The notes beneath the pieces are model-generated. The model made no database searches, was not told the DNA's origin, and was given only the letters and a program-made list of their open reading frames with translations. 36,433 nt of DNA from Devosia sp. (GTDB lineage: Bacteria > Pseudomonadota > Alphaproteobacteria > Rhizobiales > Devosiaceae). This document shows positions 18,342-32,881 of this stretch, in pieces. A program made the translations under genes and the position numbers. Positions within the stretch are counted from its first letter, which is position 1. Each line of letters begins with the position of its first letter. Location of the stretch: assembly GCF_028290645.1 (NCBI RefSeq), contig NZ_JAQGJL010000012.1:1-36433 (forward strand), written 5' to 3'.

Positions 18342-19472
18342 TCAGATGATCTCGAGATAATCGCGATCGGGCAGCGGCTCGTATTTCACGCTGGGCAGCG
18401 TCTGGTACCAGAAGGCGACCGAGGCGATGTCGTCCTGCAAGGGCAGATAGCGGCGGTCCTTCTTCTCGGTGCGCCAGCCCAGCGCCTGGATGGTGACCTT
18501 CAGGTCGCTCTCGAAGCGGATCGGGTCGCCCAGGTGCCAGCGGTACATGCCGAAGCGGGTCTGGCTGCGATAGGTGCCGTCGGGGCGGAGCACCTGCGGC
18601 AGGCCGGAATAGGGCGTCGAGAACTCGCGGTAGCGGCTATCCATGGTGTCGTCGACGACGCCGCCGTCGAAATTGTAGGCGCCGCAGAAATAGTCCTCGG
18701 TGCCGGTGCCGCAGATGGTGGGGAAGTCCCGGTCGCCATCCATGAAGAACTTGATCTCGCCCTCGCCCCACCAGCCGGCATTGTTGACGCCCCAGGCCAT
18801 GTAGGTGCCGACATACTGGCCGCGACCCTCGATGCCGTCGATGATGGTGTAGTCGGCGCCGTAGGGCAGGGGGTTGGTGCGGCGGAATTTCGCGTGGAAA
18901 TACGCCGCGTCCTCCGGCACCTGGGTGAGGGCGTAGTTGATCTGGTAGTAGATGATGCCGAACTCGGTCGGGTCGGTGTTCTCGATCTCGATGCGCGCGG
19001 CCTTGCGGAACGGCATCTCCCAGTAGCAGTTGAAGGCGCGGCCGGGGTTCACGCACACCGCCAGCGAGTTGATCTGGGCGAACTGGCCCCAGCCCGAGCA
19101 GAAGAAATCGCCCAGCGGCGCCTCGACCGAGGGGTGCTCCTGGTCGTCCCACCACATGCGGATGATGAGGCTGCGCCAGCGCAGGTTCGCCGTGGTGAGC
19201 CAGATCTGCTGGATGGCGCCCATGCCCTCGATGTCGGCAAGGACGCGCGTCTCGCCCGGCTCGATCCGGATCGAGGGCGACACCTTCCAGCCCTGGCCGT
19301 CGCCCTCGGGGCCGAGCCCCCGGGCGTGCACCGCGCCGGTGCCCTCGGTGGCCATGCCGCCCTTGCCCTTCTCGCCGGTGAAGTTCTCCGGCGAGATCGA
19401 GCGGGTCTTGGCCGAGCTCAGCCGGTAGAGGTTCGAGAGGTTGACGCCAAGGCCGTTGAAGTCGGTTGCCAT
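18342..19472 (-). CDS. GH172 (DUF2961) family glycoside hydrolase, no signal peptide
   Basis: Start MATDFNGLGVNLSNLYRLSSAKTRSISPENFTGEKGKGGMA; WWGEGEIKFFMDGDRDFPTICGTGTEDYFCGAYNF is a DUF2961 hallmark. Confidence 0.9.
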   Translation of the reverse strand: MATDFNGLGVNLSNLYRLSSAKTRSISPENFTGEKGKGGMATEGTGAVHARGLGPEGDGQGWKVSPSIRIEPGETRVLADIEGMGAIQQIWLTTANLRWRSLIIRMWWDDQEHPSVEAPLGDFFCSGWGQFAQINSLAVCVNPGRAFNCYWEMPFRKAARIEIENTDPTEFGIIYYQINYALTQVPEDAAYFHAKFRRTNPLPYGADYTIIDGIEGRGQYVGTYMAWGVNNAGWWGEGEIKFFMDGDRDFPTICGTGTEDYFCGAYNFDGGVVDDTMDSRYREFSTPYSGLPQVLRPDGTYRSQTRFGMYRWHLGDPIRFESDLKVTIQALGWRTEKKDRRYLPLQDDIASVAFWYQTLPSVKYEPLPDRDYLEII

Positions 19473-19507
19473 GTTGGTTTTCCGTTGGAGGAGAAGGTTC
19501 GGACGGC

Positions 19508-20362
19508 CTATTTCAGGCCGCTGGTTTTGATCGAGTCCATGATCTGGCGCTGGAAGACCAGGAACAGGACCAGCATGGGCAGCGCCACGATGGTCGAGGC
19601 GGCCATGGTGTAGTTCCACGAGGCGGCGTACTGGCTCTTGAAGTTGGCGATTGCCACCTGCACGACCCAGAGATTGGGGTCGGACGCGACGGTCAGCGGC
19701 CACAGGAAGCTGTTCCAGTTGGCGAGGAAGAACAGGATGGCGAGCGCCGCGATGATCGGCCGGCTCAACGGCAGGATCACCCACCAGTAGATGCGCCAGT
19801 AGCCGGCGCCGTCGATCACCGCGGCTTCCTCGAGCTCGCGCGGCAGGGACAGATAGTATTGCCGGAGGAGGAAAATGCCGAAGGCGTTGAAGATCGCCGG
19901 GACGATCAGCCCGCCGTACGAGTTCAGCATCCCCAGCGCGCGCACCAGGATGAACAGCGGCACGATGATCACCGGCAGCGAGACGAGGAGCGTCGAGAAC
20001 ATGGCGAGAAAGATCGCCTCGCGCCCCGGGAAGCGGAGCCGGGCCAGCGCGTAGCCCGCCATGGTGTGGAAGAACAGCGCCACCACCGTCACCACCGCCG
20101 AGACGATGAAGGTGTTGAGGAGGTAGCGCCAGAACGGCACCTCGGTCAGCACATAGAGGAAATTGCCCGGGGTCGGCGCGGCCGGGATCAGGTTGGGCTT
20201 GAACACCTCGGTGGGCGCCTTGATGGCGATCGACAGCATGTAGAGCAGCGGGAAGATCGCCATCAAAGCGAGCACCAGCGTCACCAGCATCCAAACGCCG
20301 CGCACCAGGGTCAGCTGGCGGCCGGTCTGCGGGGCGGGATCGTTGAGCACGACGTCACTCAT
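19508..20362 (-). CDS. Carbohydrate ABC transporter permease (MalG-like, CUT1)
   Basis: EEAAVIDGAGYWRIYWWVILPLSRPIIAALAI EAA loop; TM-rich. Confidence 0.92.
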   Translation of the reverse strand: MSDVVLNDPAPQTGRQLTLVRGVWMLVTLVLALMAIFPLLYMLSIAIKAPTEVFKPNLIPAAPTPGNFLYVLTEVPFWRYLLNTFIVSAVVTVVALFFHTMAGYALARLRFPGREAIFLAMFSTLLVSLPVIIVPLFILVRALGMLNSYGGLIVPAIFNAFGIFLLRQYYLSLPRELEEAAVIDGAGYWRIYWWVILPLSRPIIAALAILFFLANWNSFLWPLTVASDPNLWVVQVAIANFKSQYAASWNYTMAASTIVALPMLVLFLVFQRQIMDSIKTSGLK

Positions 20363-30801: not shown

Positions 30802-31865
30802 TGCGGTTCCTGTTCCTCACCGTTGCAGTCCTCGTCGCGGCCAGCCCGGCGCTCTCCGCCGAGTACAGCGTCACCAGCGAGAAGGTGAAGGCGCTCACCG
30901 GCCCCAACGCGCCCGCCGAAATGAAGGCGCCCGACATCTGCGGCACCGACCTCGGCACCATGGCCGAGATCGATGGCAGGGTGGTCCTCGCCTTCGGCGA
31001 TACGTTCGGCTGGAACGACAATGCCTGCATGCGGTTCGGGCCGAACTGGCGCTCCAACGTCATCGGCTTCACTGCCGACAAGGACCCGTCGGACGGGATC
31101 GTCATCGACGACTGGGTGACGGGCGCCGACGGCAAGGCCATCGAGGTCGCCAAAGGCGGCCACCAGGATGCGTTCAAGGGGGAGCAGACCAAGATCCCCA
31201 CCGCCATGGTGGCGGTCGGCGACACGCTTTATCTGCACTACATGTCGGTGCACGGCTTCGCCCAGATGGGCGGGGTGTGGCTCTGCAACTGGTCCCGGTT
31301 CATCTCGTCGGCCGATGGCGGCAAGAGCTGGACGCCGGGGCCGGAGGAGTTCGGCAACTTCAAATCGAGCTTCAACATGCTGGCGCTCTCGGCCCAGCCG
31401 GGTGCCGGCAATGAGGTCGGCAAGTACGTCTATGCGGTCGGCACACAGTGCGGCCGCTTCTCGGGCGCCCGCGTCGGCCGGGTCGAGGCGGGCAAGGTGC
31501 TCGATACCGGTGCGTGGGAGTATTTCGACGGCGCCGGCTGGGTGCCCGATCAGGCGCAGGCGGCCGAGGTGATCAAGCCCGGCGCCGGCGAAGGCTCGCT
31601 GGTCTGGAACGCTGGCATCGGCCGGTGGATGTACACCACCCTCAATGAGCTCTCCGAAGCGATCGAACTCCGCTTCGCCGAGCGCCCCGAGGGCCCATGG
31701 TCGGCCCCCGAAGTGCTGGCCCGCGGCTCCGACTACGCCCAGGCCTATGGCGCCTACATGACCCCGTCCTGGATCTCCGAGGACGGGCTTACCTTCTATT
31801 TCGTCATGAGCCAGTTCGGCCCCTACAATACCTATGTGATGAAGGCGACGCTGACCGCGCGCTAG
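30801..31865 (+). CDS. DUF4185 (GH183-like) secreted protein, putative endo-D-arabinanase
   Basis: Signal peptide MRFLFLTVAVLVAASPALSA; DLGTMAEIDGRVVLAFGDTFGWN and NWRSNVIGFTADKDPSDGIVIDDWV typical of DUF4185; TGATG overlap with the ATPase stop. Confidence 0.82.
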   Translation: MRFLFLTVAVLVAASPALSAEYSVTSEKVKALTGPNAPAEMKAPDICGTDLGTMAEIDGRVVLAFGDTFGWNDNACMRFGPNWRSNVIGFTADKDPSDGIVIDDWVTGADGKAIEVAKGGHQDAFKGEQTKIPTAMVAVGDTLYLHYMSVHGFAQMGGVWLCNWSRFISSADGGKSWTPGPEEFGNFKSSFNMLALSAQPGAGNEVGKYVYAVGTQCGRFSGARVGRVEAGKVLDTGAWEYFDGAGWVPDQAQAAEVIKPGAGEGSLVWNAGIGRWMYTTLNELSEAIELRFAERPEGPWSAPEVLARGSDYAQAYGAYMTPSWISEDGLTFYFVMSQFGPYNTYVMKATLTAR

Positions 31866-32881
31866 CGCGGTGTCGGGGCCTCCGGGTCGATCAGGCCGGC
31901 GGTCTTCAGGTCGGTCCAGAAGCCGGCCGGGATCGCCTCCTGGATGAAGCCGATATTGGCCGTGACTTCCTCGGGCTTCGCGCCGCCGGGGATGACAGAC
32001 ACCACGCTCTGGTGGCCGAGCGGGAATTGCAGCGCCGCCGCCTGCAGCGATACGCCATGGGCGGCGCACACCGCCTGGATCTTCCGGACCTTGTCCTGGA
32101 TATCGGGCTCGGCGATGCCGTAGCGATAGCGCGCGTTCGGCCCCGGTCCGGTGGCGAGGATGCCGGAGGCGTAGGGCGCGCCGATGATCACCGAGATGTT
32201 CTGTTCGGCGCAGCGCCTCATGCCTCTCTGCAGCGCCGACTGGTCGAGCAGCGTGTAAGGCATGGCGATGATCATGAAATCGAGCGGCACCAGCGGCGCG
32301 ATGGTCTCGACCGCCTCGGTGGCGTTGAGGCCCATGCCGATGGCCTTGATCTGGCCGGTGCGCTTCAGCTCCTCGAGGGCGCGGATGCCGGTCTTCTGCA
32401 AATCGTCGAGGCTGGGGCCACCTTCCGTGCCGGCAGTTTCCGGATCGTGGATCAGCAGCGCGTCGATGGTGTCGAGGCCGAGCCGCAGCAGGCTCTGCTC
32501 GTAGGAGCGCATCACCCCGTCATAGGAATAGTCCCAGACGATCTCCATGTTCAGCCCGCCGCCCCAGGGGGTGCGGTCGAAGGTGCGGGGATCGGCCGGG
32601 CGCTTGAAGTAGCGGCCGATCTTGGTGGTCAGCACGAACTCGTCACGCGGCTGGTCGATCAGGAAGTCGCCCACCCGATGCTCGCTGAGGCCGAGGCCGT
32701 AATAGGGGGCCGTATCGAAGAAGCGGATGCCGCCGTCCCAGGCCGCCTTCAACGTCGCATGGGCGGTCTCGCCGGAGACCCGGTTGTACATGCCGCCAAG
32801 ATGCGCCGAGCCGAAACCGAGCGGCGGCAGGGTGAGGCTGGTGGCGCTGACTTGGTGGCGATCGGACAGTTTTGCGGGCAT
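31862..32881 (-). CDS. Aldo/keto reductase, D-threo-aldose 1-dehydrogenase (L-fucose/D-arabinose dehydrogenase)-like
   Basis: LPPLGFGSAHLGGMYNRVS, GIRFFDTAPYYGLGLSEHRVGDFL, DALLIHDPE; AKR Tyr in the TAPYYG motif. Confidence 0.83.
   Translation of the reverse strand: MPAKLSDRHQVSATSLTLPPLGFGSAHLGGMYNRVSGETAHATLKAAWDGGIRFFDTAPYYGLGLSEHRVGDFLIDQPRDEFVLTTKIGRYFKRPADPRTFDRTPWGGGLNMEIVWDYSYDGVMRSYEQSLLRLGLDTIDALLIHDPETAGTEGGPSLDDLQKTGIRALEELKRTGQIKAIGMGLNATEAVETIAPLVPLDFMIIAMPYTLLDQSALQRGMRRCAEQNISVIIGAPYASGILATGPGPNARYRYGIAEPDIQDKVRKIQAVCAAHGVSLQAAALQFPLGHQSVVSVIPGGAKPEEVTANIGFIQEAIPAGFWTDLKTAGLIDPEAPTPR

What the first reader, a model, noticed from the sequence alone, without database searches (positions are those of the whole stretch)
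18342..32881. Candidate D-arabinan utilisation locus in a Gram-negative: GH172 + GH116 + DUF4185/GH183 with two sugar importers, LacI and an arabinose-type dehydrogenase
Seen: a divergent gene block holding exactly one GH172 (DUF2961), one GH116 and one DUF4185 protein, two CUT1-type transporters, a LacI regulator and a convergent AKR. Established (from memory): work on Dysgonomonas gadei and Microbacterium arabinogalactanolyticum assigned endo-D-arabinanase activity to GH183 (DUF4185), exo-alpha-D-arabinofuranosidase activity to GH172 and exo-beta-D-arabinofuranosidase activity to GH116. Together these dismantle mycobacterial arabinogalactan/lipoarabinomannan D-arabinan. Inference: all three activities in one ABC-transporter locus suggest a non-Bacteroidetes, non-actinobacterial, importer-based arabinan scavenging pathway, perhaps feeding on actinobacterial cell-wall debris.
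Basis: partly seen in the sequence, partly recalled or inferred. Interest (0 to 1): 0.92.

Follow-up and report, generated by a model that had tools for sequence, protein, structure and literature searches.

The report
Devosia D-arabinan scavenging gene locus
A soil bacterium of the genus Devosia carries a regulated set of genes, conserved in several relatives, that should cut D-arabinan (the unusual sugar polymer best known from the tuberculosis cell wall) into small pieces, import them through two pumps and break them down inside the cell; this kind of locus had been described in Actinobacteria and gut Bacteroidota but not, as far as I could find, in this group.

Summary
The window is a contig of a Devosia genome (Alphaproteobacteria). 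Between 18342 and 31865 lie two divergent operons around a LacI gene and a tandem palindromic operator: GH172 with importer A, and importer B with GH116, a MalK-type ATPase and a secreted DUF4185/GH183. Each enzyme's best solved relative is the matching characterised Microbacterium D-arabinan enzyme (ExoMA1, ExoMA2, EndoMA1). The published catalytic residues are all present, as is the GH172 residue (Asn253) that excludes fructofuranosides. GH183 has a signal peptide; GH172 and GH116 do not. Synteny, operator and purifying selection (dN/dS 0.09-0.33) are conserved in other Devosiaceae, so an importer-based D-arabinofuranan scavenging locus is the best reading.

Corrections. The AKR is not a coupled part: it ends a neighbouring Opp operon, three locus carriers lack it and non-carriers have it. 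GH116 alone proves little: the same importer+GH116 module occurs in Rhizobiales without GH183. Carriers lack fucose isomerase, so the D-arabinose route is open. In this genome MalK has an amber codon at the Walker A lysine. The substrate's source (mycobacteria or Gram-negative Araf glycans) is untested. I found no earlier report of such a locus in Pseudomonadota.

The parts
18342..19472 (-). GH172 (DUF2961), ExoMA1-type exo-alpha-D-arabinofuranosidase, no signal peptide (predicted cytoplasmic)
   Evidence: PF11175 330.7 bits; best PDB relative 8ic8 ExoMA1 374 bits against 127-145 for other GH172; both catalytic Glu and Asn253 kept; clade with ExoMA1 98/98
19508..20362 (-). importer A permease 2
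   Evidence: PF00528
20355..21299 (-). importer A permease 1 (start uncertain; ORF to 21344)
   Evidence: PF00528
21304..22647 (-). importer A solute-binding protein, twin-arginine-type signal (WSRRSILK)
   Evidence: SBP_bac_1; sequence
22735..23739 (-). LacI-family regulator
   Evidence: LacI + Peripla_BP_3
23777..23806 (.). tandem palindromic operator ATGGATTTGTGAATGCATTTGCAAATCCAT in the divergent promoter region
   Evidence: 0.06 matches expected in the window by shuffling, 2 found; at the locus in all ten Devosiaceae genomes searched, control pattern 0
24026..25279 (+). importer B solute-binding protein with Sec-type signal peptide
   Evidence: SBP_bac_8; hydrophobic N-terminus
25354..26250 (+). 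importer B permease 1
   Evidence: PF00528
26256..27110 (+). importer B permease 2
   Evidence: PF00528
27126..29681 (+). GH116, ExoMA2-type exo-beta-D-arabinofuranosidase candidate, no signal peptide
   Evidence: best PDB relative 8ic6 ExoMA2 441 bits against 74 for beta-glucosidases; E431, D557, H446, R483 kept
29683..30801 (+). MalK/UgpC-type ATPase gene; amber TAG at 29806-29808 in place of the Walker A Lys (GPSGCG*ST)
   Evidence: Lys present in the seven relatives examined
30801..31865 (+). GH183 (DUF4185) endo-D-arabinanase with Sec signal peptide MRFLFLTVAVLVAASPALSA
   Evidence: PF13810 261 bits; best PDB relative 8hhv EndoMA1 E=7e-42; D33, D51, R198, E243, Y293 kept

Best explanation
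The locus is a LacI-controlled utilisation system for D-arabinofuranose polymers in Devosia. The GH183 enzyme is exported by Sec and cuts alpha-1,5-linked D-arabinan outside the cytoplasm. The released arabino-oligosaccharides enter through one or both CUT1 importers. In the cytoplasm GH172 removes terminal alpha-D-Araf and GH116 removes terminal beta-D-Araf, giving D-arabinose. LacI binds the tandem operator between the divergent operons and releases it when a sugar signal is present. Shown here: gene content, homology, residues, export signals, conserved synteny, conserved operator and purifying selection. Inferred: substrate, reaction products, direction of flux and the regulatory ligand. 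The assembly looks modular: GH172 with importer A and this LacI type occurs alone in one relative, and importer B with GH116 and MalK occurs alone across Rhizobiales.
For: Closest solved relatives are EndoMA1, ExoMA1 and ExoMA2, which completely degrade mycobacterial D-arabinan together (PMC10509167). Catalytic and specificity residues kept. GH172 falls in the ExoMA1 clade, apart from alphaFFase1, BACUNI_00161 and DgGH172c. Export signals match the published Microbacterium model: endo enzyme exported, exo enzymes not. Synteny in Devosiaceae, operator, dN/dS 0.09-0.33 in all 11 genes. G434 keeps the other two enzymes but fills the GH172 slot with a different GH172 of the lineage holding DgGH172c, itself a proven alpha-D-arabinofuranosidase (PMC10115798). 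No DprE1-like gene in nine carriers, which argues against self-recycling. The DUF4185 enzymes tested so far, from several lineages, are endo-D-arabinanases (PMC10115798).
Against: No activity data. No D-arabinose catabolic gene in the locus, and no fucose isomerase family member in any carrier. GH116 active-site residues are the same in Rhizobiales modules that lack GH183, and a GH172 61% identical, with the same Asn, sits beside GH140 in a Parabacteroides PUL, so single genes do not prove D-Araf specificity. GH183 Trp138 is Phe and Leu292 is Ala or Ile in Devosiaceae, so product profile or substrate may differ. No outer-membrane uptake protein is encoded nearby. In this genome the locus ATPase has an amber codon.
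Confidence: 0.8

Rival explanations
1. Same enzymes and transport, but the natural food is not actinobacterial wall: it is D-Araf in Gram-negative surface glycans (pilin glycans, O antigens, exopolysaccharides).
For: D-Araf occurs on Pseudomonas PA7 pili and some GH172 and DUF4185 enzymes cut it (PMC10115798). Gram-negative DprE1/E2 systems that add Araf are described (PMC11127046). A roseobacter plasmid holds DUF4185 close to UbiA+HAD, GtrA, FAD oxidase and SDR genes.
Against: GH116 in the locus points to beta-D-Araf ends, which are typical of mycobacterial arabinan (PMC10509167); soil is rich in Mycobacteriales (general knowledge).
Confidence: 0.3
2. The locus works on another furanoside (apiose-, fructofuranose- or L-arabinofuranose-containing plant glycan).
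For: GH172 relative next to GH140 in Parabacteroides; importer+GH116 modules without GH183 are common in Rhizobiales, so module B has another or a broader substrate there; several carriers are plant- or soil-associated.
Against: GH183 has no other known activity; GH172 has Asn253, which blocks fructofuranose (PMC10509167), and groups with ExoMA1 rather than alphaFFase1.
Confidence: 0.12
3. In this particular genome the locus is decaying, because the ATPase has a stop codon in its Walker A motif.
For: TAG at 29806-29808; loss of nearly all of module B in the relative G500, which keeps LacI, operator and the last 61 residues of DUF4185.
Against: MalK dN/dS against relatives (0.17) shows no relaxation and the rest of the frame is open, so the change is very recent or an assembly error in a 423-contig genome; about a dozen other MalK-length homologues, the closest 67% identical, could replace it, as MalK ATPases are often shared.
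Confidence: 0.25
4. The enzymes remodel the cell's own D-arabinan.
For: Mycobacteria are thought to use DUF4185 this way (PMC10115798).
Against: No full-length DprE1-like gene in nine carriers; two importers and cytoplasmic exo-enzymes fit scavenging.
Confidence: 0.04

Closest known systems
D-arabinan PUL of Microbacterium arabinogalactanolyticum (PMC10509167)
   Same: GH183 (exported) + GH172 and GH116 (not exported) + ABC importer with an SBP_bac_8 binding protein; all three enzymes are its nearest solved relatives
   Different: Gram-negative host; one GH183 instead of four; two importer sets; no fucose-type isomerase in carriers and no isomerase/kinase seen in the locus; LacI with a conserved tandem operator
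PUL42 of Dysgonomonas gadei (PMC10115798)
   Same: GH172, GH183 and a GH116 in one locus, Gram-negative host
   Different: that PUL is a Bacteroidota system with a fucose isomerase as its most abundant carbohydrate-active protein; Devosia uses ABC importers, no TonB/SusD-like gene was seen, and no fucose isomerase
Rhizobiales LacI-SBP-permease-permease-GH116-UgpC module (e.g. Sinorhizobium sp. B11 p1; second copy in the window's own genome)
   Same: importer B, GH116 and ATPase in the same order, 56-76% identical in the complete modules
   Different: no GH183 or GH172, unrelated LacI (about 29%), no shared operator, His instead of Phe three positions after the nucleophile motif WEG starts to differ (WEGQH against WEGQF)

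Membership tests
GH183 (DUF4185) endo-D-arabinanase | PF13810 domain over its whole length | tested here: met
   261 bits, profile positions 10-309 of 309
GH183 (DUF4185) endo-D-arabinanase | nucleophile D33, acid/base D51, third acidic residue E243, R198 | tested here: met
GH183 (DUF4185) endo-D-arabinanase | beta-propeller fold like EndoMA1 | tested here: inconclusive
   model of low confidence (pLDDT 49.7), yet best match 8hhv E=1e-16 and AraH2 of M. tuberculosis also listed
GH183 (DUF4185) endo-D-arabinanase | endo activity on D-arabinan | not testable with these tools
   needs assay
GH172 exo-alpha-D-arabinofuranosidase (ExoMA1 type) | two catalytic Glu | tested here: met
GH172 exo-alpha-D-arabinofuranosidase (ExoMA1 type) | Asn253, which excludes alpha-D-Fruf | tested here: met
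   Asn in all nine sequences of the Devosiaceae clade; Gly in alphaFFase1; Ala, Cys or Gly in the other GH172 outside the ExoMA1 clade
GH172 exo-alpha-D-arabinofuranosidase (ExoMA1 type) | clade with ExoMA1, apart from fructofuranosidase | tested here: met
   98/98 support
GH116 subfamily 4 exo-beta-D-arabinofuranosidase (ExoMA2 type) | E431, D557, H446, R483 | tested here: met
   but also met by all homologues without GH183, so not discriminating
GH116 subfamily 4 exo-beta-D-arabinofuranosidase (ExoMA2 type) | closer to ExoMA2 than to beta-glucosidases | tested here: met
   441 bits to ExoMA2 against 74 bits
Actinobacterial-type D-arabinan PUL | exported endo-enzyme, ABC importer, exo-enzymes without signal sequence | tested here: met
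[quoted passage not shown]
   no PF02952 in any carrier, none seen in the locus; other isomerase types and kinases were not searched genome-wide
Actinobacterial-type D-arabinan PUL | induction by D-Ara or mycobacterial wall extract | not testable with these tools
   needs RNA data

The most novel reading that the evidence does not exclude
Soil and root Devosia are specialised consumers of mycobacterial-type D-arabinan and use two parallel importers, one paired with GH172 for alpha-ended and one with GH116 for beta-ended oligosaccharides, with a D-arabinose route other than fucose isomerase; the locus arose by fusion of two older modules plus GH183.
Probability: 0.3. Interest if true: 0.72.

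Novelty: new variant of a known kind. Interest (0 to 1): 0.58.

Why it matters
D-arabinan turnover was described in Actinobacteria, gut Bacteroidota, phages, myxobacteria and a predatory bacterium. A regulated, importer-based system in Alphaproteobacteria adds a soil and root lineage that could live on the walls of mycobacteria and their kin. It offers a new GH183 lineage (about 37% identical to EndoMA1, with changed subsite residues) for analysing mycobacterial arabinogalactan and LAM, and two binding proteins whose affinity for D-Araf oligosaccharides can be measured directly. It also flags that the widespread rhizobial GH116 modules, one of them annotated as a glucosylceramidase, may act on beta-D-Araf or on something still unknown.

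Tried and rejected
AKR as D-arabinose dehydrogenase of the locus: rejected as a coupled part. It is the 3' gene of an Opp operon (IclR, amidohydrolase, L-rhamnonate-dehydratase-like, SBP5, OppBCDF, AKR in relatives), present in non-carriers G482 and G488 at 82% and 72% and at most 43% in carriers G476, G479 and G434. Fucose isomerase route: not found. GH116 residues as proof of specificity: not discriminating. Self-recycling of D-arabinan: no DprE1-like gene. Structure prediction of GH183 gave a poor model, used only as weak support. Search for sigma-70 promoters and terminators in the locus gave no more than chance.
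Full report
What is there. The window is contig C225 of a 4.36 Mb, 423-contig genome. Its nearest relatives with names are Devosia (Alphaproteobacteria, Hyphomicrobiales, Devosiaceae). 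The locus spans 18342-31865. On the minus strand, from the centre outwards: LacI, binding protein A, permeases A1 and A2, GH172. On the plus strand: binding protein B, permeases B1 and B2, GH116, MalK-type ATPase, DUF4185/GH183. The genome holds one DUF4185 and one DUF2961 and a second GH116 elsewhere.

Enzymes. By sequence, GH183's only solved relatives found are EndoMA1 entries (8hhv, 8ic1). GH172 scores 374 bits to ExoMA1 and 127-145 to the other solved GH172. GH116 scores 441 bits to ExoMA2 and 74 to beta-glucosidases. These three Microbacterium enzymes together degrade mycobacterial D-arabinan completely (PMC10509167). The published catalytic residues of GH183 (D33, D51, E243, R198) and the stacking Y293 are kept; W138 is Phe and L292 is Ala or Ile in Devosiaceae. 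GH172 keeps both catalytic Glu and Asn253, the residue that blocks fructofuranose; GH172 outside the ExoMA1 clade have Ala, Cys or Gly there. The GH172 tree joins the window and ExoMA1, with Paenibacillus and Parabacteroides rows, at 98/98, apart from alphaFFase1, BACUNI_00161 and DgGH172c. GH116 keeps E431, D557, H446 and R483. A low-confidence model of GH183 still finds EndoMA1 first.

Place of action. GH183 starts with a clear Sec signal peptide, binding protein A with a twin-arginine motif and binding protein B with a Sec signal; GH172 and GH116 have none (judged by eye and hydropathy, no signal-peptide predictor was available). This is the arrangement proposed for Microbacterium: endo-enzyme outside, exo-enzymes inside (PMC10509167). 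How a polymer crosses the outer membrane, or whether GH183 leaves the cell, is not known.

Conservation. PF13810 matches in 8 of 19 genomes of the genus and 10 of 136 of the family, 4 of 398 sampled in the order, 6 of 385 in the class and 4 of 399 in the phylum; outside the family these matches are weak, partial or of another kind. The gene order is the same in Devosia sp. 66-14, ZB163, 66-22 and G474, and in Root413D1 with an extra GH172; isolate PMG_193 lacks importer A; G434, of another genus, lacks importer A and has a different GH172 in the slot. Devosia insulae DS-56 carries GH183, with the operator site on another contig. All 11 genes are under purifying selection, pairwise dN/dS 0.09-0.33.

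Regulation. The LacI-SBP_B intergenic region contains the tandem palindromes ATGGATTTGTGAATGCATTTGCAAATCCAT, nearly invariant in relatives. A search of ten whole genomes found the motif at this locus in every one, hardly anywhere else, and never in the reversed control. It is absent from the rhizobial GH116 modules and present by the related LacI genes of G500 and of a Devosia plasmid. So this LacI is most likely a local regulator with this operator (inference).

Modules. In G500 the locus is split. At one site only LacI, the operator and the last 61 residues of DUF4185 remain. At another site LacI, operator, importer A, GH172 and an own ATPase are intact. Conversely, importer B + GH116 + ATPase, 56-76% identical in the complete modules and behind an unrelated LacI, occurs in Rhizobiales, on a Sinorhizobium megaplasmid, and in part (importer B and GH116, cut by a contig end) as a second copy in the window's own genome, without GH183. 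Hence the locus looks like a union of two modules plus GH183 (inference). It also means that GH116 by itself cannot be taken as proof of D-arabinan use. In the alignment, GH116 from GH183-linked loci read WEGQF at the nucleophile (8 of 8; ExoMA2 reads WEGSF), those without GH183 have His in the place of that Phe (12 of 12); this may only reflect ancestry.

Sugar catabolism. The AKR at 31862-32872 is not tied to the locus. Its operon in relatives holds an enolase-superfamily gene nearest to L-rhamnonate dehydratases. None of the carriers has a fucose isomerase C-terminal domain, unlike D. gadei, whose most abundant carbohydrate-active enzyme on D-arabinan was a predicted fucose isomerase (PMC10115798). 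The D-arabinose route in Devosia is therefore open.

The ATPase. In this genome codon 42 of the MalK gene is TAG instead of the Walker A lysine; the seven relatives examined have Lys. There is no sign of relaxed selection, and many MalK-like ATPases exist elsewhere in the genome, the closest 67% identical. The change is recent or a sequence error.

Source of the substrate. Carriers lack a DprE1-like gene, so the polymer is probably foreign. Mycobacteriales are the obvious source, but D-Araf also occurs in Gram-negative glycans (PMC10115798, PMC11127046), and a Tateyamaria plasmid even has DUF4185 near UbiA+HAD, GtrA, FAD-oxidase and SDR genes that resemble the D-Araf donor pathway.

Novelty. 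Full-text searches for GH183, DUF4185, and D-arabinan with Alphaproteobacteria or Devosia found no earlier description of such a locus in Pseudomonadota; supplementary figures and closed papers could not be read. I class it as a new variant of a known kind.

Noticed in passing
window 29806-29808: Amber TAG at the Walker A lysine codon of the locus MalK ATPase; the seven relatives examined have Lys. Real mutation or assembly error unknown.
   Followed up: partly
L062 (Tateyamaria omphalii plasmid NZ_CP019313.1) 5070-16017: DUF4185 gene near UbiA+HAD prenyltransferase, GtrA, FAD-binding oxidoreductase and SDR genes, resembling the decaprenyl-phosphate arabinose pathway: a possible D-arabinan-making cluster in a marine roseobacter.
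   Followed up: partly
L109-L119, L061, L112: Widespread Rhizobiales module LacI-SBP-permease-permease-GH116-UgpC without GH183 or GH172; substrate unknown, the Sinorhizobium copy is annotated as glucosylceramidase.
   Followed up: partly
L032 8242-9560 and L052 4489-10914 (genome G500): Locus split and partly deleted: operator, LacI and the last 61 residues of DUF4185 left at one site, importer A + GH172 with own LacI and ATPase at another.
   Followed up: yes
window 31862-36387 and L053, L131, L132, L130: Opp-type importer operon with (in relatives) IclR, amidohydrolase, L-rhamnonate-dehydratase-like gene and AKR: probably a separate sugar-oxidation operon with an Opp importer.
   Followed up: partly
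window 9809-17654: Second Opp-type importer operon with UxuA-like dehydratase and an SDR/epimerase-like gene, suggesting import of uronate-containing glycosides.
   Followed up: no
L122 (Parabacteroides plasmid) 10273-12900: GH172 61% identical to the window enzyme, with the same Asn, directly after a GH140 gene in a SusCD locus: ExoMA1-like GH172 may also serve other glycans.
   Followed up: no
L120 (Devosia sp. A8/3-2 plasmid CP104975.1) 19101-30533: GH172 81% identical with related LacI and operator but an Opp-type importer, followed by a GH127 importer operon.
   Followed up: no
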